Shown: in pieces, positions 257 through 19,145 of the stretch
How positions within the stretch are numbered: the stretch's first letter is position 1
Layout of the letters: each line of letters starts with the position of its first letter
DNA from: Parasitella parasitica
Lineage: Eukaryota; Mucoromycota; Mucoromycetes; Mucorales; Mucoraceae
Direction: 5' to 3'
DNA: 60,730 nt
NCBI GenBank assembly: GCA_025201805.1
Contig: MU619303.1
Coordinates: forward strand, 2,637 to 63,366
Made by a program: the position numbers and the translations under genes
The notes under the pieces: model-generated
What the model saw: only the letters and a program-made list of their open reading frames with translations
Database searches by the model: none
Told to the model about the DNA's origin: nothing

Positions 257-2286
257 ATGAACATTCTTATTTACAATGATCTCGGGGCATCACCCAACTC
301 AGTAAAGCAAGCATACAATTCTCTGAAAAAAATTTTGGGTCATGTTTACGATATAATTCAAATTGATCGAAGAGTTTTACAAAGTGAACCCTGGGAGGAA
401 GGTTGCGTTATGCTTGTCATGCCTGGTGGTCGAGATTTGCCATACTGTGAAGCATTGAATGGAGAACCTAATGCGCGGATAAGAGCATTTGTCCAACAAG
501 GCGGTCGATATTTGGGTTTGTGTGCGGGTGCGTATTATGCTTCAGCGAGCATCGAGTTCGAAAAAGGTAGGGCGCTGATGGAGATCATCCAACCAAGAGA
601 ACTGGGATTTTATCCAGGACTATGTCGAGGTACTATGTATCCTGGATTTGTATATAATAGTGAAAGCGGAGCCAGATCAGTAGCTGTGAATTTGGACCGA
701 GACATACTATCTCCATACTACGATGGTGACGATGTGCCCGTCGAGATTAATATGTATTATAATGGAGGAGGTTACTTTGTACTTCCAGAGAAACATGATA
801 ATGTGACAGTCTTGTGCCGATACAAAGAGCCTGGTAGCCTGCGTGAAAATACTGGATCTCAACCTGCAGCAGCAGTTGTGCATTGTAAAGTTGGTCGAGG
901 TCATGCGTTGCTGATTGCGGCACACCCCGAATATGATATATCATCTCAAGACCTTTTACTTGCAGATGAGGGTGCTGTTGGCCAATCTATGAAAAACATG
1001 CTTTGTGATCTGAGCTTGTCTGAAATAGAACGAAAGCGCTTTCTTCATGCCGCATTTGCTTTAATCGGTTTAGACGTGGTTCCTGTTGCAGACATCATTG
1101 TTCAAGAAAACAAAATACCAAATGTTGCGCCTTTATATTTCTCTGGTCTAACCAAGCAATGCGTGTTTAAACCCGCGTCCTATTTGCTGCGAAAAGCCGA
1201 CCCCATAACTCACATCTTGGAGGATAGCCATGATGTATTTCACGTATCTGCACTAGGCGATGCTCCTAGCGAATGGGTACGTTTATTATCGCTATGTCGA
1301 ACCCAAGAGCACAAACCTCCCGTGATTGAGCTTGTATATCAAAGTACCATTAATGCAACAGAGCCCATATACCCACCAAGATTATTAACTCCCCATTTTG
1401 ACCTGGAAGAATATTTTAAGCAATTGGTAGAAAAGAGAAATTTGGAAGGGGACAGAGGCGGCTGGCTGTCATTTGGCAATGGTATATTATATTCTGAAAT
1501 GGTTGCAAGTACACAATCCGTCATAGACAAGTAAGCTATGTAAATTGAGTCTGTGATTTAGTGTCATTTACAAATCTTTGCAGGAATTCTAGATTTTCTC
1601 AAGCATTACCAACTGGTTTTGTATGCTTGGCTGCAAATCAAGTAGCAGGTCGAGGTAGTTGATTATCTAATAACAGCGTAAATTATGGTTTTGACTGAAT
1701 TGGTAATGTAGGAAGAGGCCAAAACTCATGGATGTCTCAAGCTGGGGCACTCCAATTTAGCTTGGTTGTTCGACACAATGTGAATATTAGACATGCTCCC
1801 GCGGTTTTTATTCAATACATTGTAGCCTTGGCTGTGGTAGAAAGTATAAGAAAAAGAGCAGGATATGAAGACATACCATTGCGATTAAAGTGGCCAAACG
1901 ACATCTATATTAATACAAAGTCTGGCGAATTAAAGGAGGTGGGAGGCCAATTGATAAATTCAACAATTGTCGATGATGAGTTTGTGCTAGTGATTAGTAA
2001 TAACATTTGAATTATGTTGGAGTGTATCCTATATGTAGAAAAAAACTAATATTACTTGCCTTTTTTTTTTTTAGGTTGTGGCATTAATCTATCCAATGCA
2101 GAGTCTATGGTATCCATCAATGATATCATTAAAGACCACAGCCCAGCAGCCTCTGAATTATCAGCTGAAGGTTTTTTGGCTGGGATACTCGTAAAATTTG
2201 AAGTTTACTACAATCAATTCTGTGAAAAGGGTATGGGACAGTGGTTCCTGCACAAGTACTGCCAGAATTGGTTGCATGAGCAATAA
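257..2286 (+). pseudogene. BPL1: Biotin-protein ligase (holocarboxylase synthetase), 5' part; interrupted gene
   Basis: The encoded enzyme makes biotinyl-AMP from biotin and ATP and attaches biotin to lysines of carboxylases. Four exons can be placed: 257-1530, 1584-1654, 1712-1996 and 2075-2286. The first encodes the N-terminal glutamine-amidotransferase-like domain typical of fungal BPL (motif GLCAGAYYAS, about residues 86-95). After splicing, the catalytic domain shows GRGRGQNSW (biotin/ATP loop), KWPNDIY and SCGINLSN, as in the family. The reading frame stops at 2284-2286 just after WLHEQ, where family members continue into a C-terminal SH3-like domain. That missing domain is found at about 14119-14286. 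I infer the gene was broken by transposon insertion, or that the assembly misjoins here. If biotin ligase is essential in this fungus, another copy should exist elsewhere. Confidence 0.88.
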
Positions 2287-2680
2287 AATTCACTATTTTG
2301 TGGAAGATAATCGAGACTCAATTACCACAAAGGACGATATCGAAGCCATAGACTACATCACTGATGAAGGGCATGAGTTTCATTTGAAAAACTTAACTGA
2401 CTTCACAAATTATAAACTTCTTCAACCCACTCCTATTGAGCTTGGCACTGAAGATGAGACTTCAGAAAAGCGAATGGCGATTAGATACTGCCAAAAAAAA
2501 AGCTAAAAAAAAGCCAAAGAGATGAAGGCTGAAGGCAGCACCTACCAAAACTACATAGATGAACAAAAAAACACTGTTTTTTGTACCAAGTTCTTCTCGG
2601 CTGCCAAATCCCGAAGATTGGTTGGTATTTCTGAACGAACTGCTCAGGGCCAAAATTTTAGTAAAAAAGTGTAAAAAACA
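2287..2680 (+). other. Unidentified ORF remnant at left edge of the inserted block
   Basis: An open frame overlapping the end of the ligase (about 2198-2506) continues after a frame change to about 2673. The lysine-rich stretch and the segment reading PIELGTEDE give it the look of a decayed transposase or transposon-carried gene, but I do not recognise the family. It begins exactly where homology to biotin ligase ends, so it probably belongs to the insertion. Confidence 0.3.
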
Positions 2681-3480
2681 ACAATAGATACAATTTAATT
2701 CCTTCTTTATTTTTGAAATAGGATAACGTGCAAAGGTTAGACATTTCTACTCTATTTATATTCGTTGTTGTAAACGGTCTGTCTGTCAGTTACGCCGTAA
2801 CTGTCATTCAAGTTTTTCTGTATTTGATTTTACATAATCAAGTACGGTATTCTTATATCGATGTTTCTGACACATTTGAAAATGACATGCATGGACCAGT
2901 CCTTACATTGGTCTGTGCGTTCCAAATGTGGTTTGTGGTTCGATTTCTTTTATAAATGCTTCGCGGTTTCACGGTTAGATATTTAGGTAATTTGTTCATT
3001 AGCTTGATTTGGAATCTCTAAGGTAGCTCCGTAAGAGATGACATTCAATTACTTTTTTGTGGGAATTTCCATCACTTCAGCACAAAAATATAATATTTGA
3101 GTCTGGATGGAACATCTACGATAAGAGGATCAACATTGGTAGCTGCCCTCGCAGCCAACTTCAAGAGGAACAAAAAAGTCAAATCTTTGAACTGTATGAA
3201 GAAACCCCTTTTGCAACGGAAGCTGTCGAAAGTGCAGCCAGAGAGTTGAGAGCTTTAGCTTAAAGAAAATCGCAGTCAATAACTTCATCTTGCATAAGTG
3301 TTGTCTCTTAGTGAGCTTGCCCACCCTTAGCTCGAAATGATATTGGTCGTATCAACACAAGATTTGAGTGGCCATAGATACGGATTAAATGCGAAACTTC
3401 ATTTCCATTGATGAATCCATTACGAAGAACAGTCCAAGCTTCAACGACTGTTCCATTATCTCTAAGAACTATCCCGGCTG
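2681..3480 (+). other. Transposon-derived filler with small ORF remnants
   Basis: Short frames at 2728-2955 (hydrophobic) and 3057-3263 are visible. The second carries a helix-rich stretch (EEQKSQIFELYEETP) resembling the helix-turn-helix N-terminus of DDE transposases. This is resemblance only. No intact gene is seen. Confidence 0.25.
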
Positions 3481-3489
3481 TCCATTGGA

Positions 3490-3775
3490 AATATTTTTGT
3501 CTTCGTTATTTACCGCTGTTCAAAGAAATGTAGTATACTAGCTAATTACAGGATGTATTCCAGATCGTGCCCTGTTAAATCGTATCTAATGTTTTCGAGT
3601 CTCCTCTGTGCCCTGCTGTTTAGTTACCATTGACTCTGCCCACCATTTGCTATTTACCTGTACAACAAAAGAGCGGATTTGGCAAGGCATTATCTTTGAA
3701 TTCTTATGGCCCACTACTTCAATTTCAGATGTCAGAATGGCTCTATTGTTTCCGGATTTCACCCAGAAGAAAATA
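3490..3775 (+). mobile_element. LINE fragment (C-terminal part of RT ORF)
   Basis: Translation around stop codons gives AVQRNVVY, then HHLLFTCTTKERIWQ and FEFLWPTTSISDVRMALL. These align block by block with the minus-strand LINE at 7079-7867, which has MVQRNVLY, HFLFTSVPKAMVWQ and AFLWPTVDIRDIQNSLL. The segment carries in-frame stops and frameshifts and lacks the LINE 3' tail, so it is an internal relic. It is cut off at about 3775 by Tc1/mariner sequence on the same strand. Confidence 0.75.
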
Positions 3776-3996
3776 GAAGTCTTATTTATCTCCCTTCTTA
3801 CTCGCCTGATTTAAATCCAATCGAACAGTTTTGGGCAGTTATGAAAAACAAGATTAAAAATAGTAAGTTTAGTGGCAATCAAGGCCATCATTCAATAATC
3901 TCTGAGACGTGTAACCTCGCGCCAAAAAAAAAAGCGCTGAGAAACTGTATCCAGCACACTGTCAACGTCTTCCCCAAGTCTTTAAACAAGGAATAA
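3776..3996 (+). mobile_element. Tc1/mariner transposase C-terminal relic
   Basis: The translation reads YLPSYSPDLNPIEQFWAVMK, the hallmark block around the third catalytic acidic residue of Tc1/mariner-type DDE transposases. A degenerate C-terminus follows, ending VFPKSLNKE. The N-terminal half of the transposase is absent: the upstream sequence is LINE. It is a dead fragment abutting the long-TIR element that starts at about 4025. Confidence 0.8.
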
Positions 3997-4024
3997 TTAA
4001 AAAAACTGCTCCAGACTTTTATTA

Positions 4025-6452
4025 TTTCTGAAAAAAAAATTCAAGTAAAAAGGTTTCTGAGATCTAACCTTTTATTTCTGATAAAAGCTGACAAGTTTCT
4101 AAGAGAGGAGGAATATCTCCCTAAGAAGATTTTAAGCAGGGACAAGAAGTGTTGAATACTATCATATTTTTAGATTTTTACTTAAGATTAAAAATGCCCA
4201 AGAATAGAGAATTTTTTATGGTCTAATGATATGCGATTATGCTCCAATTATTTTATTTTTGATCAAACAGTATTTTTAAATGAATACAGTGAAAGTTCTT
4301 TATCGAAATTATCCACGTGTACTGCAGATACCTAAAACTGAACAATCATCAACGGGCCGTCATAATAATAAATTATTTCAGGTATGTATCCGATATCTAA
4401 ATATCTTTTCAAAAATCATAACAAATTCAAGCAATTGGCAATCTCTATTTTTATAACTTCGCATTACCATTTTATGTTACATCTGTTGAGTTAAATCAGT
4501 ATATCAATATCAAAGAAAGAATATACTGTCGGGAATCGTTATAACAGACGGGTTGGTGTACAAAATGTGTTTGGTATAGCGAGTTATTCCCCATTCAGTA
4601 TTTGGTACTTTACAGTACAGTGCCTGGAACCTGGAATCTACCAGAAGCTTATTATGAAGCTTAGCTTTTGTTAGTAGAATTACCCTCAACCTCAATCCTA
4701 ACCTCTATTCTACTATTTTTCTACATGTTCAGCATTAGAATCACAAAAAAGGAAACTCGAAGAAAGACATCAGTCATTATTATGAATAACAATGGTAATA
4801 GGGCTTCTTTGCCACTAGCAATTAGCAACTTATGAATTATTCACAAATAACAAGGGGTCATTACAGCAAAACGTTGTATTCATGAATTATTTTCTTCTGC
4901 TTCCAATCCGATGATCCACATCTGTTTTATCATATTATCGTGAAGAAAGGTATCAAAAATACTTACTTTGAAGAGCTGTAGAATTGGTATTGGCGTGGTA
5001 TCACCTCCAGAAAGATATTTTTACAGTTTAAAAGCAAGACCGTAAACTTCGTGAGCCATTTTTTGATTAATTTTTATAATCAAAAGTGCCCTGAAAACAC
5101 GAAAAATAGTATCCATTGGTAAAAAACTATATTATATTTGATTTTGGTGCAATTTGATCATGATTTTTTTTTCGATGCAAAATGACAGATTTTTTCGATT
5201 TTTTCCTTGTATCCACACATCCAAAATCATTGATTATGCATTATTCTCGATTTTGGCCTCAAAAATGCAACTTTTTACTATATTATATATTAGAAGAAAA
5301 TGATCGTAAAAGACCATTCCTTGATCTGAAAGACTGCAAATGCGCTCTAATTAAGCAAAATCTCGACTTTTCCCTCTTAATCTGTTTTTGAGATTTTTCA
5401 GCAAAATTCTTTCCATAGGCATACGGGGATTATGAAAAGTTACCAGCGTGTAAAGCGCCCAAAAATACAGCTATTATCATAGACTGACAGCCGTGGTTTG
5501 CATAGTACAAGAGGATGATATTTTGCCCCAAAGGAGTAATTTTGTTTTTTTTTATCCAAATCGAGTTTCTGGAAGAATTTTTCCTTCCTGATTTTGGACA
5601 ATTTTATTCGCCGCCATCTAAGAAAAATGGTATTTTTTTCAAGAAAGCATTAGCTTTGAAAAGCCATAGCTTACCCAATTTACTAGAAAAACAATTGAAA
5701 TTTAGCTTATTTACATGATGAACTTCTTGGCTTTCTAATGGTAGCACTTGCATGTCTGCAACTGGCCTGACGATCTCACGCTCCGATTTTGTAAAATAAT
5801 TTTCGGAAAAAAGTAAAAAAAACTCGCTACCTTCATCTGATATCAATTTGAAAAATATAAAAACTTGCTCAAAATTATGCAATTATGTAATCAAAAGGTG
5901 CCTTATAGTCTAATGCATTTTTTTTAATTACTTTTTTTTTGTGTTTGAGGTTGCTAAAATTGTTTTCTTACAGTTTGTCTTTTTTCTGACAATAACACAC
6001 TAAAGTTTACGTAGATAAAAAAAATTGGCGCCTAGAATCTACGATAGAAAAAATGGCACAGGCTTGAATTGCTGTTCTACCGTACAACTGGATACAGAGA
6101 ACCCTGCTTGGTACTTTTCTGACAAGACCTTCTACACTAAAATACGCCAGATCAACCGAATGTATAAGAAAATGCAGAGAAAAGGAAACTATCTGCCATC
6201 AGGATAATACACCCCCATTCATAAAAATCCATCTGTATATGATTTAGTTAGCTTATTTTGCAACACATTCTCTTTGCATTTTCACTATGAATAAAACAAA
6301 GCAACTACTCTTTTTCTCTAAAAATGGAAATCCCTACTTTATCTTTTAGTGAGACATTTCTCGTCTCTCAGAAACTTATTACCAGAAACCCTAATATTTA
6401 TTATCACAATTACCATGACATTTATCATTTACTTGAATGTTTTTTCAGAAAC
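4025..6452. mobile_element. Long-TIR DNA transposon, copy A (2.43 kb)
   Basis: The left end has TTTCTGAAAAAAAAATTCAA and the right end closes with ACTTGAATGTTTTTTCAGAA, which are inverted relative to each other. The inverted similarity continues inward for well over 100 bp (left GGTTTCTGAGA and TGATAAAAGCTGA; right CCAGAAACC and TCTCAGAAAC). Most of the interior also matches the copy at 53104-54962. Copy A has about 670 bp extra at 4359-5029 and about 175 bp extra near 6005-6190. No intact transposase is visible, only short frames such as 6025-6207, so it appears non-autonomous or decayed. I could not identify a target-site duplication. Confidence 0.8.
4359..5029. other. Segment present in TIR copy A and absent from copy B
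   Basis: Copies A and B align up to the sequence AACGGGCC and resume at AAAAGCAAGA. The 671 bp between are missing from copy B, where about 10 other bases occupy the join. The segment is either an insertion into A or a deletion from B. It has no coding capacity that I recognise. Confidence 0.6.
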
Positions 6453-6515
6453 GATAATAAGACTGTATTTGATTTTGTAAAAACTGCCAACTGAAAAATT
6501 CCAGCCACTCATTTT
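6453..6515. other. Short repeat also seen at the right edge of the inserted block
   Basis: The stretch around 6470-6500 (TTTTGTAAAAACTGCCAACT) resembles the stretch around 13825-13860 (TTTTTGCAAAAACAGCCAAT). This suggests both belong to the end of one older element into which other elements later inserted. The similarity is short and imperfect. Confidence 0.3.
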
Positions 6516-6519
6516 ATCA

Positions 6520-6980
6520 TACTTTATTTACATAGCCCTCCTCATTGCTCTCTTTGTCTGTTCCATTCCCGTCATTGAGGACCTCAATCATCTCATGCTT
6601 TTGTGCCCTCCTAAACTGCAAATCTGGCGGCACGTTTTTCAAAGATATCTCGTTACTATTACTCTCTCTAATGCAGATATGCTCCACCACTTGCTCGCTA
6701 TCCTTCATTGCTCTCCTTCCTTTTCTTCTACCTGAGATGACTCATTACCTCTGTCGCGTTCTATTCATTAATCAAATATTTGCAACTACTCTCTTGACAG
6801 TCTGGGCAAGCTCATTGGCGCTGGATCTTTGACTGTATTCCTCTTCTTCCCATTCCAGTGATTCACCTTGTTACTCGTGCTTTGGAACGTTTCGTAGCTA
6901 AATTACAACTAGATTCGTGGAAAACTGGCTTATTTCATTTACTTTCCCCTCCTCGTTTCAAACCCTACAGTTTTTACTTA
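6520..6980 (+). mobile_element. Probable LINE 3'-ORF relic (second LINE type)
   Basis: A translated segment reads SIPVIEDLNHLMLLCPPKLQ followed by IWRHVF. It resembles the His/Cys zinc-binding region (DxxHxxxxCP...W) near the C-terminus of LINE reverse transcriptases. It differs from the family at 6982-9522. Frames are broken and no tail is evident. Confidence 0.4.
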
Positions 6981-6981
6981 A

Positions 6982-9522
6982 TTTTTTTTTTTTGAAGGTT
7001 TTTATTACTTGCAATTAACTGTGACAAAATTTAAAAATAAACTAAAACGAAAAAGTGTTCAAATATCTCTGTAGAGGACTACAAGGAGCGGTGGACTTGA
7101 TCCTCATCGATTGTTTTTTTGATGTTGAGACGGATGGCGCTGAAGATGGAAGATGGGAGAAAGGGTTGTTGATTGAAAACCAAGCGATAGTGAGCCTTCC
7201 AAATGTTAGCTAGCGTAAGCATGACGATGAGATGAGAAGGAGCTTGGGGCTTTTGACTGTAGCGAATGGAGTAGAAATCGAGGGAGAGGAGGGAGTTTTG
7301 TATATCACGTATATCGACTGTAGGCCAAAGGAATGCCGTGATTATATTCTGCCATACCATGGCTTTGGGCACAGAGGTGAACAGGAAGTGATCAACAGAA
7401 TCAACAGTGGATGAGCAGGCGATACAAAGTGGAGACAGATGGATGAGAGGAAATAAGCGGTTGAGGAAGAACTGGTAAGGAGTGCAAGTATTGATGTAAC
7501 GGTATAGAACATTGCGCTGGACCATTGTCAGGGTAAGGGACCAGAAGAAAGTCCAAGCAGAGGGATCAATCGCACTTAGATGTTGTGGAGCAACAACAGA
7601 TGAAGAGCACGCTTCTCGAAACGATCTAGAGCTGCAACGAGCTGTTGGGGCTTGAGGATCCAGATCCACAAGTAGCTGATCAGTAAATGGACGAAATGAT
7701 ACTGCTGTTGAGGAATTGGTAGTTGGCGCGGCAGGATCACAAAGAGGAAGGAAGAATGGTTGGATGAGAATTGAGCCTTGTTCGATGTCTGGCATCAGTT
7801 GCCGTGGAACTCGCTTCATAGCAATGAGGAATGGGTGGGCGGGGTCTTTCCAATGTAGGAAAAGCATAGTAGGATGCTTCTGGAAAACATCACCGACAGA
7901 CAGAGACGCAAATCTCTGGGAAATTTGTAACTGCTGGTGGAGGCGGTGTATAGAATAGTTTGTAGCGGAAGCTTGAGCCCGGTAGCGTAGTTGATGGATA
8001 CAAGGTCATAATCACGAGGCAACATATCCATGGATCTGTATAGCATGTCAATGGTGCTAGTCCACCGAATTTTTGTAAAGGACCTGCGTGCATTGGGTAG
8101 TAGCAAAGGCAGTTGATGGAATTCAGTCTGATGCTGGTAGTTGATGTGCATCCATAACATGGCCAATAGAGGGTTACTGCTGGGGTTAAACGTTTCTATT
8201 TGCAACAATGACTGTATCCACCGGAAGTAGAGAGCAGCAGACTGCAGTTTGACATCGAGTATACCGAGGCCACCTTGATGGCGAGGTAATATCCAGTTAG
8301 TCCACGGAATGGCAGGAAAAATGCCTTGTTTCAAGAATTGGATAGCGACCGAGGGAATCAGCCGGAGTTCCTTTTGGGTCAAAGGGGTGACTCGAAGCAA
8401 ATACCAGCACTTGGAAAACAGTAGTGTGTTGACAACAGTGGCTTTACCAACCACAGATAATGATCGACCAGTGTGAACCTGAATGTCTTGCTTAAGTTTT
8501 CGGATGAAGGCAGCAACAAAGTTGGTCCTCTGTTGCGTACTTTGTATCAAGGGAAAACCAAGGTAGATGAGGGGATCAGGATCTTGGATGGTATGCAAAT
8601 GGTGGATGTTCATATCCTGCAGAGAACGGCTCCAAAATCGACTAGTGTCTCGACCAGAGATAGAGAAGGCGTCGACTTTGTTGTAATTGAACCGTGCGTT
8701 GGAGGCTCGACAAAATAGGTCCATATAATACTTCAGTAGACGAAGGTCCTGGCGATCATGTACAAAAACCAGAGCATCATCAGCATAGCACAGGACCTTG
8801 GTAGTGATCAGAGCCCGTGGCATTGACCGTGCGTTAGACTGCAGTTGATAACCATGGAAGTCTGGATCCTAAAATATGCTTTATAAGAAGAGTTCAAATG
8901 CCAGATCATAGCAGATACAGGAGATGGGGTCGCCTTGTTTGAAGCCACGGAGTTTGCGAACCTCATCCGAGAAGAATCCATTAATGTTGATGCGGATACG
9001 GTTTAAAGCCATTAGATTGTATATAAATTATACAATACTTGCAGGAAAGCCATACTGGTTGAGCACAGCTCGGAAGTAGGATAGGTTGACCCGGTCGTAG
9101 GCTTTTTCTTGGTCAAGAAGTAAGCCAATGTCTTTGTCGAGCGAGGCTATCGAGTCAGTTTGTTCAGCGATTGTCCAGCGGCGCTCGGCATCTTCCATGA
9201 GGATTTGGCAGCGCAATCCATTTTCAGCTATATACTTGCCAGGTATAAAGCCAATCTGTTTGGCATTAATCAACTTGGGGGACACAGTCATCATGCGTTG
9301 ATTGAGGACCTTGGTGAAGCATTTATAGTCGCAATTAGCCAGACTAAGGGGGCGGTAGTTGGCCATAGCCTTTGAATCACCCTTCTTCTTGAGGAGGGTC
9401 ATGATGGATTCATTCCAGGAGTCAGGGAAGATGGCATGGTCCAATGCTGCGTTGAATACCTTCAAAATCGTATTTGCACAAAATATTTGAGGGCGCCTGC
9501 AAAATCTGAAAATAAATTTCAC
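6982..9522 (-). mobile_element. LINE (non-LTR retrotransposon), 5'-truncated and decayed
   Basis: Read on the minus strand, it starts within the reverse transcriptase: YRPLSLANCDYK, DQEKAYDRV (first catalytic Asp region), GFKQGDPIS and CYADDALVF (YADD catalytic box). It then runs through a long thumb region to a His/Cys C-terminal domain and the stop after DEDQVHRSL at 7079. Several stops and frameshifts break the ORF, for example TAA after FPASIV and a frame change near 7816-7867. The 3' end has GCAAGTAATAAAAACCTTC followed by an A-run (T-run at 6982-6993 on the plus strand), the same tail as the copies ending at 11419 and 13893. No endonuclease domain remains. Confidence 0.88.
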
Positions 9523-9543
9523 AATTATGATCTAATCAAACTC

Positions 9544-10809
9544 ACAAAAATGACCTAGTCAATGATATAAGGACTATAATAAAAAAGCATCATGCTATAC
9601 GCATGTTGGCATAGCATATCTATATATAAATTTACTGCCTTCTTCACTTGAAATCTATACTATTTAGTTTTTTGGAGTTACAAAATCATCTCTTTATATT
9701 TAATCTATCATGCTTAAAAACCTTCAACGCAACATCACACATGACCATTTTATGGGTTTCATGTCAGTAAAAGAGATCTGCCAAAATGTCGAATTGCTGA
9801 TAAAACATTCAGAGACATTCCTGATCGGTTTCGTAGAACTGACACTGTTAAATACCATCCTCGAGGTGGCCCACGAAATATAAAGGTTCAGTAAATCCAC
9901 TCTGAATTTTTAAGAAATATAATTGATGAAGAAGGTGAGGGAAAAATTTTGACATTAGAGAGATTTCAGTAGAGACTTACCGTATTGACGAGTTCCTAAA
10001 ATAGTTCCCTTCAAAAGCTGTGTTTGGCCCTCAAAAGAACATCCCCAATGGAGGAAATACAAACAACTGAAAGAATAGCAAGAGAACGAAAAGATTACTG
10101 TATTGGCCTTTCGCTCAAGAGTATTAATTACATGACAAATTGTATTTTTGTTGATGAAAGTAGATTTAACGCTTGTATGGTACCCGGACGTGCAAGATCA
10201 GCCAAAGGAAAGAAGGCCCATGTAATCACAAAGACGGAAAGAGGCAAGAACATTTCAATCGTTGGTGCTATTTCAGCAAAAATGGTTGAATCTTTACAAG
10301 CTGTTATGATAAATAGTTTTACAAACAGGTTTATCTTTGCTGAATTTATCACACAGCTGTTGTAATGGGTTGATAAAGAATACCCACATCAAGAATTCTA
10401 TTTTATTATGGATAATGTAAAATTTCACAAAAGTCCTATAATACAGGATCTTTTTAAACACTCAAAACATTGCTGCCAATTTTGCCACCATATTCACCTA
10501 TGCTAAATACTATAGAAACTAGCTTCAAAAAATTGAAAAACTTTGTTAGAAGGAGCCCAAAGGAAAACAAAGAGACTATTTTGGGAGCTCATTAAGGAAG
10601 TAGAGAAGAAAATAACGTATCAAGACTGCGAAGGATGGGTCCATCATTGTGTCAATACTGTTAATAGAAGTATTGTTGGAGAAAATCTCACATTTGAAAA
10701 TTAGTGTTAAATTTTATTGAATAAAATGATTTTCTTTATTAAAGTTGTTATTCCTAAATACTGCCCGTTCGATAAGTACTTTTCGTGAGATTGACTAGGT
10801 CATTTTTGT
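9544..10809 (+). mobile_element. Tc1/mariner-type element with perfect 20-bp TIRs, transposase dead
   Basis: The ends carry the perfect 20-bp inverted repeat ACAAAAATGACCTAGTCAAT (9544-9563 and inverted at 10790-10809), giving a 1266-bp element of usual Tc1/mariner size. Inside, on the plus strand, are a degenerate helix-turn-helix N-terminus (RFRRTDTVKYHPRGGPRN) and then CIFVDESRFN (first D), FYFIMDNVKFHKS (second D) and a broken PYSPMLNTIE (third acidic residue). Stops and frameshifts make it inactive. The expected TA duplication is not intact at the present boundaries (CTC before, TAG after). Confidence 0.85.
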
Positions 10810-10849
10810 TAGGTTCTCCCAAATATTTTGTGAGATTGATCTGAAAATA

Positions 10850-11419
10850 CAATATTCTGCCTGGACCTTCTTTTGGTCTCTGTCACTTACCAAGATTCAG
10901 CGGAATGTTATACCGTATATCGTTTCATTAACAATTGTATCGCTCTTGCACCGGATTTTTCCTAAGCACCATAGCTCGGACATATGTGTTGTGTGCTCTT
11001 CTACCTCAGATACTCTGAATCACTTCCTATTCCTCTGTCCGATATAGTCAAAAGCCCCGGGCACCCTTTCATCTCATATTCATGATTACTCTGGCTAACA
11101 TTTGGAGGGATCGCTATCAGTTTGTCTTTAACCAGAAGGCTCTTGAAGCCGTTGCCGTAATGAACAGTATCCGACTCGACATCTCCAAGATGATCGACGA
11201 AGATCAAGTTCATGCTTCTTTATAGGCTCTCTATCTGTATCCTGTCTTTTCCTATAGTTTTTATTTTATTTTATATTATCCTTTATCCATTTTATGCTTT
11301 ATTCTTCATATCTTATCCTTCTATTCTTATATAATTGATGATTGCGCCCGCCGCTTGATTACACTCAAAACTCTGTGATTTACGCGGAGCAAGTAATAAA
11401 AACCTTTGAAAAAAAAAAA
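10850..11419 (+). mobile_element. LINE 3' fragment, 5'-truncated
   Basis: Plus-strand sequence encodes the same C-terminus as the LINE at 6982-9522: VCSSTSDTLNHFLFLCP, ANIWRDRYQFVFNQKA and finally IDEDQVHASL with a stop at about 11225. The 3' untranslated part ends with GCAAGTAATAAAAACCTTTG and an A-run at 11409-11419, identical in design to the other tails. Frames are broken upstream. It is a typical 5'-truncated, dead-on-arrival copy. Confidence 0.85.
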
Positions 11420-12129
11420 TACGATATTATGTTCAGACACAGTTTAGTTTGCTCTCTTTTTTTGATGATGATGCTTGTTGTAAAGAAACGAAATGCCTTT
11501 CACTCTTGCTCGGAAGCACCATCTTTTGCCTGAGGAATATCCTTACTCAAACCAAGCGACTTTAGGATAAAGAACAGATTTTTTTCTTGTGTTCTTGCAG
11601 AAGAAAATTTGTTTTCTAGAAAATCTAGTTTTAAGACAATGCTGCAGAACTTCATCTTATTCCTTAAGAGTGACTCGATGATCAAGCTGAAAACTTTCCA
11701 AGCTCAATTGCAAACGAGTTGCTTCTTCGTTAGCACATGATTCTGCTCTATTAAATTCAAAGTGGCAACAGAAGGAAGAATTTTCATTTCGTCAGTAAAG
11801 ACAAATTTGAGTAGTGTAGGACTAGGCTTTGTTTGATCTTGTAAAGAAATCTCTTCATGCTTATACAAGCTTTTTCCATTCAAGTAATCTATAGCACTGC
11901 TTATATTAATTTGATGCTTTTCTTTTTGTAAAACCAGCTTTCTATTTGGGAGAGTCATGCGCTTTTTCCAGATCAAATTGACTTCATATAACCCTTTTTA
12001 TATCGATTCTTCGGTATTGGTATCTGAAGTAGTTTTCTGCTTTTGCTATCATAAGCATTCGGTATTTCATCGAGTTGTTCTGCAAGAGACGCAAGTTGCG
12101 CTTGACAGTTTGCTCCAAAATAAAAGAAT
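11420..12129. other. Unassigned sequence in transposon block
   Basis: Two short minus-strand frames (11500-11685 and 11704-11976) are present but show no motif I recognise. They may be remains of another transposon. I see no RNA gene or intact coding region. Confidence 0.35.
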
Positions 12130-12515
12130 ATGACTTCAAATGAAGAGCAAGATGAACGCGGTAGTAAAACAGACGAAAGTGGAAGAAGGTAATGAATGCT
12201 GAAGTATTTTATTCCAAGACATTAATTTAAATTATACGTCTTATTTAATAGCATACATCCGTAAGAGCAACTTTACAAGGTACAGCCTCGCAATTATTTG
12301 TCTTGTTTTGGTTGAGCGTTTGAGCATTCAATGATTGCAGCCGTGAGATAGAACACCATTTGGAAGCACCTATTTTCTCATACTGGGATCGTAACAACAA
12401 GAAGGCCAATGTGGCCACCACCACACAAACTCCAGTTGTTCATGCAAATATGCTTTGGCAAACCGTCACGACTTGGCTCATCATCCATATTACCACCTTC
12501 AAATGTCATCTATAA
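12130..12515 (+). CDS. Hypothetical spliced small gene (80 aa), low confidence
   Basis: Three candidate exons (12130-12188, 12252-12260, 12341-12515) join in frame from an ATG to a TAA. Each junction has GT-AG ends (GTAATG to TTTAATAG, GTAAGA to ATTGCAG) and the total is a multiple of three. The product begins acidic and hydrophilic (MTSNEEQDERG) and ends in a hydrophobic stretch (TVTTWLIIHITTF). I do not recognise a family. It lies within the transposon block next to the N gap, so it may be a captured or broken gene whose continuation is hidden, or a chance reading frame. Confidence 0.25.
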
Positions 12516-12698
12516 GAACTGAAACCGCTGTAATATTGAGGCCGGCAGAGCAATAAAAACAAATACACGTTCTTGCGGCTTAAGTTGATTCAGTTAAACG
12601 CGCTGCATCAAAGCCAGCCTACTACACACTATAGTAGACAACGTATCTAGCGGTGTTTTGCGAAAAGACCATCATCTTTTAAAATCTACCGACTTTGA

Positions 12699-13381
12699 NN
12701 NNNNNNNNNNNNNNNNNNNNNNNNNNNNNNNNNNNNNNNNNNNNNNNNNNNNNNNNNNNNNNNNNNNNNNNNNNNNNNNNNNNNNNNNNNNNNNNNNNNN
12801 NNNNNNNNNNNNNNNNNNNNNNNNNNNNNNNNNNNNNNNNNNNNNNNNNNNNNNNNNNNNNNNNNNNNNNNNNNNNNNNNNNNNNNNNNNNNNNNNNNNN
12901 NNNNNNNNNNNNNNNNNNNNNNNNNNNNNNNNNNNNNNNNNNNNNNNNNNNNNNNNNNNNNNNNNNNNNNNNNNNNNNNNNNNNNNNNNNNNNNNNNNNN
13001 NNNNNNNNNNNNNNNNNNNNNNNNNNNNNNNNNNNNNNNNNNNNNNNNNNNNNNNNNNNNNNNNNNNNNNNNNNNNNNNNNNNNNNNNNNNNNNNNNNNN
13101 NNNNNNNNNNNNNNNNNNNNNNNNNNNNNNNNNNNNNNNNNNNNNNNNNNNNNNNNNNNNNNNNNNNNNNNNNNNNNNNNNNNNNNNNNNNNNNNNNNNN
13201 NNNNNNNNNNNNNNNNNNNNNNNNNNNNNNNNNNNNNNNNNNNNNNNNNNNNNNNNNNNNNNNNNNNNNNNNNNNNNNNNNNNNNNNNNNNNNNNNNNNN
13301 NNNNNNNNNNNNNNNNNNNNNNNNNNNNNNNNNNNNNNNNNNNNNNNNNNNNNNNNNNNNNNNNNNNNNNNNNNNNNNNNN
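12699..13381. other. Assembly gap (683 Ns)
   Basis: A run of N bases inside the transposon block marks a scaffold join of uncertain true length. Open frames drawn through it are meaningless. Confidence 1.
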
Positions 13382-13881
13382 CAAGCGCAGGGGCAGCATA
13401 CTTCACAGAATGAGCGCACTAAACACAGTGTTTAATACAAATCTAGACCTTCGACTCGGTATTAAGTTCCTGTCAATGGCCACAGAACTTAAACGAATAC
13501 GCTCTATTCTTGAAGTATGCTTGGATCACACTCTAAAAATTGAGAACTATAGTTCAGTTAGTAAGCGCTGCTGGGAGATTGTGTTGATAAGCGCTTACAT
13601 TGTCTCCATCTTTGAAGCCAGAGTGGAGTTATGCCGAAAAAAATCGTTTCTCTTTTTTTCCAATGTTGCTATGAGCAACTGGTTTCTATTGTAGACAATG
13701 TCTTTAATAACGCGTAAAATATTACTTAAAGTGCAATTCATAAAACACTTTATCTTTTTCTTGATGCTCATGTTGAACGTAAAGTATCTGAAAGAAAAGC
13801 GAATTGAGTAAAAAAAATCGTTATTTAGTTTTTGCAAAAACAGCCAATTGAAAATTTCAAGTACGCTGATTGGAATTTTGT
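13382..13881. other. Unassigned sequence right of the gap
   Basis: A plus-strand frame at 13410-13694 and a minus-strand frame at 13595-13891 show no recognised motifs. The end (about 13830-13881) is made of short related units such as GCCAATTGAAAATTTCAAG and GCTGATTGGAATTTTG. These continue beyond the LINE insertion at 14098 (GCCAATTGGAATTTT), so they look like the subterminal end of an older element. Confidence 0.4.
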
Positions 13882-14083
13882 AGGCCGCCATTTTTTTTAA
13901 AGATTTTTATTGTTTGCTTCATGTAGATTAAAGTAGCGATATGGTAACCAAGAGGCGGGTGCAATTATATTGATAGTATTAATAAAAAAATAAGTATGAG
14001 AAAGAGATAGATAAACTAAAGGAAAGAAAATTACAACATAGAGTGAGCCTGATCTTCGTCGATCATCTTGGAAGGCCGCCATT
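13882..14083 (-). mobile_element. 5'-truncated LINE insertion with 11-bp target-site duplication
   Basis: The plus strand reads AGGCCGCCATT (13882-13892), then T-rich sequence, and ends before an identical AGGCCGCCATT (14073-14083). The interior on the minus strand starts with AAGATGATCGACGAAGATCA, matching the last codons of the LINE ORF seen at 7079 and 11225. It ends with GCAAACAATAAAAATCTTT plus an A-run. It is a very short (about 180 bp) 3'-end copy produced by target-primed reverse transcription. The intact duplication suggests a younger insertion than its neighbours. Confidence 0.9.
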
Positions 14084-14118
14084 AAACGTTTTGAATCCGC
14101 CAATTGGAATTTTAAAAA

Positions 14119-14286
14119 TCCGTCGATTGAGACCGTAGGCACGAAAAAGTTCACATTGTTGGGATCACACCAGACTACGGGCTGCTTCAAGTAAAAAGCC
14201 TCAAAAAGCGAGATAAACTATATGGTCTTTTGCCTGATGGTAATAGTTTTGACATGATGAAGGGTCTTTTGATTCCAAAGAAATAA
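14119..14286 (+). pseudogene. BPL1: Biotin-protein ligase, C-terminal exon (detached)
   Basis: The reading frame gives HEKVHIVGITPDYGLLQVKS and then LPDGNSFDMMKGLL followed by PKK and a TAA stop at 14284-14286. This matches the C-terminal SH3-like domain of eukaryotic biotin ligases, including the conserved PDGNSFDMM signature. It supplies exactly the part missing from the gene that stops at 2286. The same frame contains a TGA at 14128-14130 immediately upstream. An AG acceptor (CCGTAG) at 14133-14138 could make 14139 an exon start, but ten or so family residues between the two parts are not found. I conclude it is the displaced 3' end of the same gene. Confidence 0.85.
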
Positions 14287-14632: not shown

Positions 14633-17600
14633 ATGAAAGATTACTACAATAAAAAAACGATCCTTATTACTGGCGCTACTGGATTTGTTGGAAAAGCTAT
14701 ATTATGGCAATTGTTAAAAGAAGCTGGAACAGTGATCGATAAAGTGTACGTTCTTATTCGCCCCAAGAGGATTCCGGCTGGAAGCCCTTCACAACGCATT
14801 TTAGATGAAATTGTCAATACCCCAGTAAGTTTTTCGCTGATGGTGCTGTCAAAAGATATTCATGATTTTGCCTTAGGTGTTTTATAAGCTATTAAGATAT
14901 TTTGATAACGACAAAGAAGCATTGAGACGAAAGCTAATCCCAATTTCCTGCGATCTATCTCTATCACATATGGGATTGTCCATGGAAGACAGCATTCAAA
15001 TGAAGGACACAAATATTGTTATTCATTGTGCGGCTACGTCAGAATACGAAAACTCGGTGGAATGGAATCTAGAGGTAAAGCTTGCTGTACATCTCGCTTT
15101 CTTTTCTTTCTTGCAATACTGATACCCTATTTTGTTTTTCTTTTTTTTTTTAGACAAATGTACTGGGAACTATTCGATTAATGGATTATTTGGATGGTTG
15201 CGATGATGTTTGTGAGTTTTGGCATTTTTAAAACGTTTGTAATATAACAGCTAATCCGGCCTTAAATAATCAGGTTCTTTTATTCACATGTCGCCCATTC
15301 ATATATATCAAGATGCACCCGACGATAGCGATGATACTGTCATTTCAGAATACATTTATGATATTGGACTTGGAGATCCTGAGGATTTTCTAAAGCAACT
15401 CCTTGGCGCAGATGAAAAAGGTATACAATAGGGTTTTTTTTTAAAAAAAAAGAGACGGGGACACTAATATGCCTGCTGTATCACATACATATTCCAGAAT
15501 TATCAGCATTGGTTAAGCGAATCTTACAAAAATTCTCGACATTACATCTATTCACAAAGGCACTCACAGAACACTTGATCGCGAAAAGAGTGAATCAAGT
15601 TCGAAATGTTGAAAATCAAGGATATCCCCTTGCTATTTTCCGCTCTCATTTTATAGGACCTGCTGCAGTAGAGCCCACGCCAGGCTGGACAACTGGCATG
15701 TCGGGTGTTTCTTCATGGCTGGCACTTTATGGTCATTCTATACCTATCATTCAGCCAGATCAAGGTCGACAATATGCAAATGTATTTCCTGTAGACTATG
15801 TTGCTAAATGTATTATTCACTCAATCCACACAATTAAATACCCGGGTCCTGACTTTGTTGCGCCGTTTGCTAATAATGTGATTAAGAGAAACTCGACAGC
15901 TATCTACCATCCCTATATATTCAACATGTCAACTTCAGCATTCATAAAGCCAATCACATGGTGCGAAGCATACACTGCCATTCAAGATTACTGGACTAGG
16001 CCAAGCAATGTGATTCCCAACAATCAAAAACTGCCTATAGCTGATAGCTATTTTTCCAGTAATAAAACTTTATCGAAAGCAAGATTTTTGATGCAATATT
16101 ACTTTCGATCCTCTGCCAACAGCAACAGCAGTAACAGCGGTTTGAACAGCGTATTAAGCAATGGAAATTCCTCATTCAATTTATACAACGCTCCATCGCG
16201 AGACTACAACCAGCAGCAAGATCAGCAAAAATGGATGGAGCTGGCTTCCAACATCCGTAACAATCTTGCCAGACAAAACCGTTATCCTTGGGAATACAAT
16301 ACAACACAATTCGATGCTTTGATAGACAAATTGGAAGGCATAGATGTTTTGCAAGACCTGAGTTGGCATAACTATTTTATGCAGAGTTGCCATGGCGTCC
16401 ATGTCTACACTTTGCACTGCGGACATCATATGCGCACTAGTGTCCTGCCTTCATTTCAAGTATGCTCGCTGTACTCTCATTCCAACACGGCTTCTATTAT
16501 CGACTCTTCGTTCAAAAGCGTAGTGTATACCGAGGAGGAAATGCGACAGAGAGTGCAATATATGATTGCGACTGTGATAAGCTCGTTGAAAAATCCTGGG
16601 CAGTTTATACAAAATGAAAAGGAATGGAAGCCTATTTGGATCGAGTATCTGAACGACATGCTGGAAGATTGGTGCGACGAAGGGTCCATTGAAGCCTTGG
16701 AAATTAGCATGAAAAAGAAAGAAATTCAGACCAGGTGGCAATTGAAGGTTGACGAGAATAACGAAATGACCAAAGTAGCCGTTCTGAACGATCCCAGAGT
16801 CGGAAAAGCCATTCAGCAGGTAAAATGGGTTGACAGAGACTGAGGACAGACGCTAAAATATGTACAAACTTCAGATTTCTGACAGGTCAGGTATGCCTGT
16901 TGAAAAAGTAATGGAGGAAGCTATGCGATCATTGAATAGAATCCAAGAGCGAACACAATTGCCTTACGCTTGGTTTGCTGCGACATTCCTTCAAAAGCTA
17001 TTCAAAAGTATGTTTAGTGGAATTTACATTGACAAAGCTAGTCTAGAAAAGGTAGCTATGTATAAATTTGGTGGTTATTATTGCGACTCATGTAGCAAGT
17101 AGATCAGAGAATCTGTCAAAAACAAGCGTGTCGTTTATGTGCCTGTTTCCAAGACTACATTAGACCCGGTTCTCGTGTGGTATTTAGCCATACGCTACGA
17201 GTTGCCTATCCCAGCGCTCGTTTTAGATGAAGCCTTGGCTATTTTGGGTCCCTTCTCTGACCTGCTTCGACTTGCCGGTGCAGTATTCATCAAACGAGAC
17301 CCCAATACTAGGTCGACGTTAACTACTGCTGTCACTTCAGCCTACCTTCAACATCTCATGCAGGAACACGGCGCAATGACACTGATACTGGATAAAGTGA
17401 GATCAAGAACGGGCATCTTCCAAAAACCTTACCAGGATGGGCTTGTGGATATGATTATTGGCCAAGATGTTGTATTTATTCCCATCAATGTGTCATACGA
17501 GGAAGTACCTGATATTGTATTGCTGATCGCACAAGATTTGCAAACGAGCAAGAGGAAATCACAACACAATGGCAACAATAATGGTATACAAAGATCGGCC

Positions 17601-19145
17601 TCCCATCGCATGTCGACACCTACCAAAGTGTCAAGGCCCAGCGAAAGTCGATCCCATCGTGTACGAAGCCGCAGCTTGAATGGATGGCAAGAAGAACAAA
17701 AGACGAAGTCAGGAGCTGAGCAACAAGCGATGCATTGTGGCAGATTGCTTGTAGGTTTTGGGCAGCCAATTTCGGTGGATGGCAGTGTTGTTGGGGCGCA
17801 ATGGGCGGATACGATCCAGAAAGAGCAAAAGAGAGCGACGGTCATCAGTCCAATTTCACTGGTGGCATCAATTTTGCTATATAGCCGAGTCAGAGGAAAC
17901 TGCATTGATTTACAGACAATGAAGGACTATTTGGAGTATTTGCGCGTCTTTGTAAAGAGCCAAAGCATTGCAATGGATTGGCAAGGTAAGCATGCCAAGA
18001 TAAAAAGGAGCATTCGGTTTAACAGATTGCGCTGTGGGTATTACAAAGACTTTGAAGACACGGAAACTATCATATTTTACAACATACGGTTATTGGAAAA
18101 GACTTCGAATTTGGTTACATGGGACGAACGAAACAGTGGATTTACGTTTAAAATTAGCACTAAATCGGAAAGCATACTACAGCTGGCATACTACGCAAAC
18201 CAGGTAAGCCTCTCAAGTGCTGTTTTGTGTGTAGCATGCTGCTAACGTTTCGTAACATCTAGGTGCGCGAGCTGTTTGTCTTGGACTCCATCTTTGCGAG
18301 CACTTATCTGTCATTTGGTAGCTTAACAAAGGTTGCTGAAATGATTTTTATCGAGAGATTCGAGTTCTTGGCAACCTTATTTCAGTATCACTTTGAAACG
18401 TCGTGGAACATTAAAGAGGAATACCAGAGATTGAAGCTAAAGTACCAAGAGTACATGGGCGGAAACGAGGGCACTTTGGAGAGAATAGTAACCAAGGTCA
18501 ATCTCAGTAAAAAGTACAACCAGTTTGGTCTGTTGGCATCTTTTATCTACCCCATCCTTGATTCGTTCTGGGTCACTTTGTGTGCATTGTCGTCGCTGAA
18601 TGATGTCAAAGCCTTACCATTGTCTTTGGTACCAACCCTATCTCAGTGGATAGGCATGCATTTGATCAGCGGTAGAAGAACCATCTACAGCGAGGTTCTA
18701 TCCACTGAATACAATCAAAACACTCTACAGACTTTGGTTCAGTGGGGATTATTGAGTAAGAAATCAACAAAGCTAATCCTCTCTCCCGATGCTCAAATGC
18801 TGATGCAGGCACTGGGACTATCTACCAATGAAGATTTGATCATTTTAGAGGTAAATCACTTTAAAAGCAGTGCATTCGTCCAGCCATTGACAGTATTTTT
18901 AGCATGAATCTGATGAAATTGCTGAACTGTGTAAAAAAGTTGAACAGCTACGAAAACGAGACGAAGACGACAGTTTATCCAGATATATTTACGAGAAATG
19001 CCAAAATCAAATCAGATCATTAGCCAAAAAGTCCACGTCTTTCAGCAAAAAGCAGGGTGCGACTGTAGTTGAAGAGAAAGAAGAAGCCATGATTCAGCTT
19101 GGCTATGCTTTACTACAAAGCATGGACAATAACGCTACCCTTTGA
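14633..19145 (+). CDS. Fatty acyl-CoA reductase-acyltransferase (PlsB/GNPAT-type) fusion protein
   Basis: Nine exons (14633-14824, 14877-15074, 15154-15211, 15274-15420, 15498-16819, 16875-17051, 17103-18203, 18263-18850, 18903-19145) join to 1341 codons. Residues 8-20 give ILITGATGFVG, the NAD(P)H-binding loop of male-sterility/FAR-type short-chain dehydrogenases, and about 25-420 follow that family. From about 640 to 850 the protein resembles GPAT/DHAPAT acyltransferases (FLQKLFKSMFSGIY, VVYVPVSKTTLDP, LLRLAGAVFIKR, VRSRTG, FIPINVSYEEVPD). In ordinary families the first domain reduces acyl-CoA and the second acylates glycerol-3-phosphate or DHAP. Here the FAR YxxxK tyrosine is His215 (HLFTK) and the acyltransferase HX4D histidine is Ser714 (SKTTLD). 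The glutamate of motif III is also altered (DKVRSRTG). Activity of both domains is therefore doubtful; it may be a regulatory or altered-specificity enzyme. Confidence 0.85.

What the first reader, a model, noticed from the sequence alone, without database searches (positions are those of the whole stretch)
257..14286. Biotin ligase gene split by an 11.8-kb nest of transposons
The frame at 257-2286 ends at WLHEQ, where the C-terminal domain should begin. The missing domain, ending PDGNSFDMM...PKK-stop, sits at 14119-14286 on the same strand. Everything between is LINE, Tc1/mariner, TIR-element or gap sequence. Few residues seem lost at the join, and a TGA sits in frame just before the detached exon. 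Either an essential gene is disrupted here, it is rescued by a second copy, it tolerates a giant intron, or the assembly joined a haplotype with the insertion.
Basis: partly seen in the sequence, partly recalled or inferred. Interest (0 to 1): 0.75.

Follow-up and report, generated by a model that had tools for sequence, protein, structure and literature searches.

The report
Transposon-cut spare biotin ligase gene
In the mould Parasitella parasitica one of two old copies of the biotin-attaching enzyme has its last piece cut off by a pile of transposons, while an intact second copy elsewhere in the genome most likely does the essential job.

Summary
[quoted passage not shown] The only matching C-terminal exon (14140-14286) lies 11.85 kb downstream, behind Tc1/mariner-like, LINE and TIR-element pieces and 683 N. 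The genome (Parasitella parasitica) also holds an intact paralogue, 645 codons on contig C87, so no essential function need be lost.

A 57-protein tree puts the window gene in an old Mucorales duplicate lineage (A); the intact copy lies in the other (B). The full-length Mucor atramentarius relative shows about 11 residues missing at the join. No splice donor remains at the ancestral site, so a giant intron is unlikely but not excluded without RNA. The Parasitella A protein evolves faster than its Mucor relative, most in the ligase half.

Verdict: an ordinary transposon-disrupted duplicate. The wider lead: other lineage-A members have also lost ligase parts (Choanephora, Blakeslea) or consist of the N-terminal amidotransferase-like domain alone (Benjaminiella), a domain of unknown role. 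Some of these may be gene-model errors.

The parts
257..1530 (+). BPL-A exon 1: BPL_N (amidotransferase-like) domain and linker
1584..1654 (+). BPL-A exon 2: start of the biotin-binding loop region
   Evidence: same intron positions as the C87 copy
1712..1996 (+). BPL-A exon 3: ligase domain, KWPND motif
2075..2286 (+). BPL-A exon 4: ends WLHEQ-stop; BPL homology ends at WLH (2277). The intron before it is absent from the C87 copy
2276..2663 (+). 5' part of a Tc1/mariner-like transposase reading frame, starting at an ATG that overlaps the last BPL codons; no inverted end seen before it
2664..3085 (.). Short repeat with many copies in the genome, inside the transposase remnant
   Evidence: 49 matches including itself, 40 of 59 candidates scored
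3706..3996 (+). C-terminal part of a DDE transposase (DDE_3)
   Evidence: 2.7e-11
6981..9522 (-). LINE remnant with reverse transcriptase
   Evidence: RVT_1 6.9e-12 at 9031-9522; 7819-8823 below the curated cut-off; span inferred from reading frames and the repeat arms
9538..10815 (+). DNA transposon remnant with inverted ends and DDE_3
11039..11420 (+). LINE 3' end, other copies up to 95% identical
12699..13381 (.). 683 N: assembly gap or withheld stretch
13882..14083 (-). Truncated LINE 3' end (13891-14072) between two copies of AGGCCGCCATT
   Evidence: target-site copies read by eye
14140..14286 (+). Detached last exon of BPL-A (C-terminal cap), 48 codons and stop

Best explanation
The window gene (BPL-A) is one of an old pair of Mucorales biotin protein ligases. 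In this P. parasitica genome mobile elements piled up at the junction before its last exon, and about 11 codons, the splice donor and the element's end are missing there. As far as the DNA shows, the gene can make only a 613-residue protein without the C-terminal cap. Shown: the break, the intact paralogue BPL-B, the relationship to full-length A proteins, the faster evolution. Inferred: the cap-less protein no longer biotinylates; BPL-B supplies biotinylation; constraint on the ligase half relaxed.
For: Stop right after WLH and a transposase start overlapping it. Intact BPL-B on C87. Full-length relative P0002 at 79%. Tree: window gene with P0002 (99) in a 15-row clade (100), BPL-B in a separate 29-row set (97). 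Faster evolution of P0001 than P0002: 74 to 17 lineage-specific changes, 40 to 5 in the ligase half; no such excess in BPL-B.
Against: The 613 codons hold no premature stop or frameshift, all splice borders before the break are intact, and the GRGR and KWPND motifs are kept, so decay is at most recent or mild. P0001 alters 8 of 138 invariant positions, but one intact control (P0006) alters 5 of 143. Neither expression nor activity was tested. The split of A and B rests partly on a node of support 93.
Confidence: 0.84

Rival explanations
1. The mobile elements sit in a tolerated 11.8-kb intron, and a BPL-A protein with its cap is still made by splicing.
For: The break lies at the place of a natural intron in BPL-B; the detached exon has an open frame and no stop; 13 donor/acceptor pairs near the break would keep the frame.
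Against: No donor at the ancestral site; about 11 conserved residues missing; six introns of the two copies are 49-78 bp; the NCBI model of the gene stops at WLHEQ.
Confidence: 0.06
2. The assembly joined pieces wrongly or took up a haplotype with the insertion.
For: 683 N within the insert. Contig length of P0001 in the protein database is 171,564, C67 here is 168,886, unexplained.
Against: The genome's only A-type last exon lies on the same scaffold, strand and order; the 5' junction at 2276 is in contiguous sequence far from the N. A survey found very low heterozygosity in 27 Mucorales assemblies (79.4%; PMC9540331, passage); it does not concern this assembly.
Confidence: 0.05
3. The cap-less 613-residue protein is still a working, perhaps specialised, biotin ligase.
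For: Loop and KWPND motifs kept, frame open, annotated as a protein.
Against: The cap is part of the minimal ligase in the paper's class I description (PMC12582158, passage); ligase half evolves fastest.
Confidence: 0.08
4. BPL-A in Parasitella is kept for its N-terminal amidotransferase-like domain, the ligase half being dispensable (compatible with the main reading of the break).
For: P0001-specific changes 40 of 223 in the ligase half against 25 of 291 in BPL_N, p 0.002; invariant BPL_N positions changed 1 of 60; triad C-H-E kept; Choanephora and Blakeslea A copies and a Benjaminiella short protein keep the same half.
Against: BPL_N also evolves faster than in P0002 (25 to 7, p 0.002); the short proteins and loop losses may be gene-model errors; A proteins of other species such as P0002-P0007 are full length.
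Confidence: 0.2

Closest known systems
Class III (eukaryotic) biotin protein ligase, e.g. S. cerevisiae BPL (PMC12582158)
   Same: BPL_N with C-H-E triad, ligase domain with GRGR and KWPND
   Different: C-terminal cap not in the same reading frame; detached by 11.85 kb of mobile elements
Lineage-A BPL of Mucor atramentarius (P0002)
   Same: 79% identical over the whole 613 residues, nearest in the tree
   Different: P0002 is full length, 668 aa; Parasitella end branch 0.22 against 0.053
Lineage-A proteins of Choanephora (P0061) and Blakeslea (P0066)
   Same: Damaged ligase half with a better kept BPL_N
   Different: They lack the biotin-binding loop, not the cap; cause unknown
Transposon-disrupted duplicate genes (general knowledge)
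   Same: Nested elements in one of two paralogues
   Different: Nothing in kind

Membership tests
[quoted passage not shown]
Class III biotin protein ligase | Ligase domain with GRGR loop and KWPND | tested here: met
   7.7e-23; motifs
Class III biotin protein ligase | C-terminal cap in the same protein | tested here: not met
   stop at 2284-2286; cap exon 11.85 kb away
Class III biotin protein ligase | Biotinylation activity | not testable with these tools
   needs an assay
Mucorales BPL lineage A | Groups with lineage-A proteins in a tree | tested here: met
   15-row clade at 100, wider A set at 93
Gene with a tolerated giant intron | Splice donor at the ancestral site and no coding loss | tested here: not met
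Gene with a tolerated giant intron | RNA joining the exons | not testable with these tools
   no RNA data
Tc1/mariner-like element at the 5' break | Transposase homology | tested here: met
   E 8.7e-9, 6.7e-8 and 9.0e-4 to copies elsewhere, the last a 444-codon frame; DDE_3 at 3706-3996
Tc1/mariner-like element at the 5' break | Inverted ends with TA duplication | tested here: inconclusive
   no paired ends listed for this element (25 of 26 pairs shown); TA duplication not tested

The most novel reading that the evidence does not exclude
Mucorales lineage A of biotin protein ligases is being turned, several times independently, from a ligase into a carrier of the amidotransferase-like N-terminal domain: by loss of the biotin loop in Choanephora and Blakeslea, loss of the cap in Parasitella, and reduction to the bare domain in Benjaminiella and perhaps Apophysomyces and Radiomyces. 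In Apophysomyces ossiformis the full-length ligase has G and Q in place of the triad's C and H, while a separate 308-aa protein keeps C-H-E. If true, the domain has an activity separable from biotinylation, and these fungi are natural tests of what it does.
Probability: 0.22. Interest if true: 0.68.

Novelty: new member of a known kind. Interest (0 to 1): 0.36.

Why it matters
It also points to an old duplicate pair in Mucorales; my two searches for papers on it listed none, in one open-access library. Members that lost ligase parts but kept the amidotransferase-like domain could make the open question of that domain's function testable (no definitive function assigned, PMC12582158, passage).

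Tried and rejected
Missing exon start sought in 2240-14140: best score 29, against a median of 26 and a 95% level of 32 in 100 shuffles, so not found. Other copies of the DNA just before the detached exon, to define the element's end: none but itself. No DNA copy of 2240-2668 elsewhere; only protein-level relatives. A GC donor at the break was considered and set aside as weak (judged by eye; only lists frames). The Pfam scan of the 48-aa exon found no family, and the remnant of the transposase start found none. Structure prediction was not used. Paper searches: searches listed no paper; one search listed 4, none on point by title; one search listed 6, of which I read passages of two; one search listed one, of which I read 12 of 28 passages. 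Recalled, not sourced: that the C-terminal domain of E. coli BirA is needed for activity. Synteny with other Mucorales was not tested; I had no fungal genome but G000. Whether the other P. parasitica assembly has a BPL-A is open: no second P. parasitica A protein is among the 120 of 343 hits listed; an assembly listed for CBS 412.66 is very fragmented (15,637 in the table, read as scaffolds; PMC9540331), but that P0037 comes from it is my assumption.

Rows dropped: of the 71 best proteins I used 57 in the tree; the 14 left out are short rows without an organism name. Of 211 hits, 120 are listed; I took five named short proteins and left out others, among them Jimgerdemannia P0139 (439 aa, BPL_N only) and partial records. 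Metagenome rows of 406-463 aa were not counted as reductions, as they look like exon 1 read alone (inference). Invariant positions were defined on 20 of 23 aligned proteins, without P0001, P0061 and P0066.

Full report
WHAT IS THERE. The window is C67:2637-63366 of a 30.7-Mb, 232-contig genome. A 100% match to an NCBI protein of Parasitella parasitica (P0001), and the shared contig length of 143,130 for the second copy (P0029 and C87), identify the organism. P0001's contig is given as 171,564 bases and C67 as 168,886, which I cannot explain. The first part of the finding is a gene of four exons with GT-AG introns that gives 613 residues ending WLHEQ-stop. It carries BPL_N and the ligase domain. 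The last exon lies at 14140-14286 on the same strand.

SECOND COPY. The last exon has 2 matches in the genome and exon 1 has 2: the window gene and one locus on C87, 57% and 48% identical. The C87 gene splices to 645 codons without a stop; its introns are 57, 67 and 49 bp, the third inside the S codon of WLHS, where the window gene breaks off. The window gene's introns are 53, 57 and 78 bp; the first two are shared, the third is absent from C87.

THE JOIN. M. atramentarius P0002 reads WLHSNAVVTLTTYNNEQVQIIG. The window has WLH before the break and HEKVHIVG after it, so about 11 residues are missing. They were not found in between above the level of shuffled sequence. An ATG at 2276 overlaps the last BPL codons and opens a frame related to a transposase family: matches elsewhere at E 8.7e-9, 6.7e-8 and 9.0e-4, the last a frame of 444 codons whose homology also begins near its start. 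A further 442-codon frame is only a weak match (E 0.36). I saw no inverted end before the ATG, so the element's end was probably lost with the splice donor. That is inference. Thirteen donor/acceptor pairs near the break would keep the frame, 8 with GT and 5 with GC, so a giant intron is not excluded by frame alone.

THE NEST. 2664-3085 is a repeat with 49 matches including itself (40 of 59 candidates scored). 3706-3996 and 10024-10365 score for DDE_3 and 9031-9522 for RVT_1; 7819-8823 scores below the RVT_1 cut-off, and 7082-7867 has no hit. 9538-10815 has inverted ends and copies at up to 83-87% (69 matches, 40 of 42 candidates scored). 11039-11420 is a LINE end with copies up to 95%. 13891-14072 is a truncated LINE, with the five longer other copies at 81-87%, between two copies of AGGCCGCCATT (by eye). 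683 N lie at 12699-13381. Much of the rest has no identified family, and the stretch just before the exon has no other copy.

ANCESTRY. In a tree of 57 proteins the window gene groups with P0002 (99) inside a 15-row clade (100). With five rows from Absidia, Chlamydoabsidia, Halteromyces, Gongronella and Hesseltinella it forms a 20-row set at 93, under the 95 mark. The C87 copy lies in a 29-row set at 97. M. mucedo, Helicostylum, Choanephora, Blakeslea and others have a protein in both sets, so the duplication is old. The tree was a quick search with 13 of 54 inner branches unresolved.

CONSTRAINT. With P0003 as outgroup, P0001 has 74 changes of its own and P0002 has 17; with two outgroups 57 and 11. 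Ligase half 40 to 5, BPL_N 25 to 7, linker 9 to 5 (no excess). BPL-B shows no excess (25 to 16 and 29 to 26). Within P0001, ligase half against BPL_N gives p 0.002. P0001 alters 8 of 138 invariant positions; six left-out controls alter 0 of 138, 1 of 139, 5 of 143, 1 of 139, 0 of 138 and 1 of 139. This suggests relaxed constraint, mainly on the ligase half; it is protein-level evidence, and no codon-rate test was possible.

WIDER PATTERN. P0061 (Choanephora) and P0066 (Blakeslea) lack the GRGR loop and change 44 and 38 of 92 invariant positions of the ligase half and tail, but 9 of 60 in BPL_N. A caution: the loop spans an intron, and two Phycomyces models on the other side of the tree also lack loop letters (P0065, P0069), so models can mislead there. 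Five named proteins of 262-308 aa hold BPL_N alone. In a BPL_N tree of 58 rows, Benjaminiella P0121 falls in lineage A (13-row set, 99); Apophysomyces P0127 and P0143 and Radiomyces P0141 lie near the base of the A side with weak support and mostly long branches; Endogone P0152 lies with the outgroup. Four of the five keep C-H-E; Endogone's lacks the C. Full-length P0013 of A. ossiformis has G and Q for C and H, while P0143 of the same species keeps them. In yeast BPL the triad is conserved, yet no amidotransferase activity was seen and no definitive function is assigned (PMC12582158, abstract and passages). Short proteins may be gene-model errors; their DNA was not seen.

VERDICT. A real transposon disruption of a spare biotin ligase gene, ordinary in kind. 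The giant-intron and mis-join readings are unlikely but need reads to close. The loss of ligase parts in several lineage-A proteins is the more interesting lead.

Noticed in passing
window 14633-18907 +: The next gene downstream has fatty acyl-CoA reductase-like pieces (NAD_binding_4) followed by Acyltransferase and GPAT_C pieces on the same strand: perhaps one fused gene. In animals such enzymes make ether lipids (recalled).
   Followed up: partly
proteins P0013 and P0143 (Apophysomyces ossiformis): The full-length ligase has G and Q where the amidotransferase triad has C and H; a separate short protein keeps C-H-E.
   Followed up: partly
proteins P0029 and P0037: Two BPL-B proteins both labelled Parasitella parasitica are only 91% identical, so the strains may not be one species.
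   Followed up: no
window 1997-2074: An intron absent from the C87 copy; ends of some lineage-A protein models (P0008, P0010) suggest that it is common to that lineage.
   Followed up: partly
proteins P0022, P0032, P0036: Zychaea, Circinella and Fennellomyces models read ARAR instead of GRGR in the biotin-binding loop.
   Followed up: no
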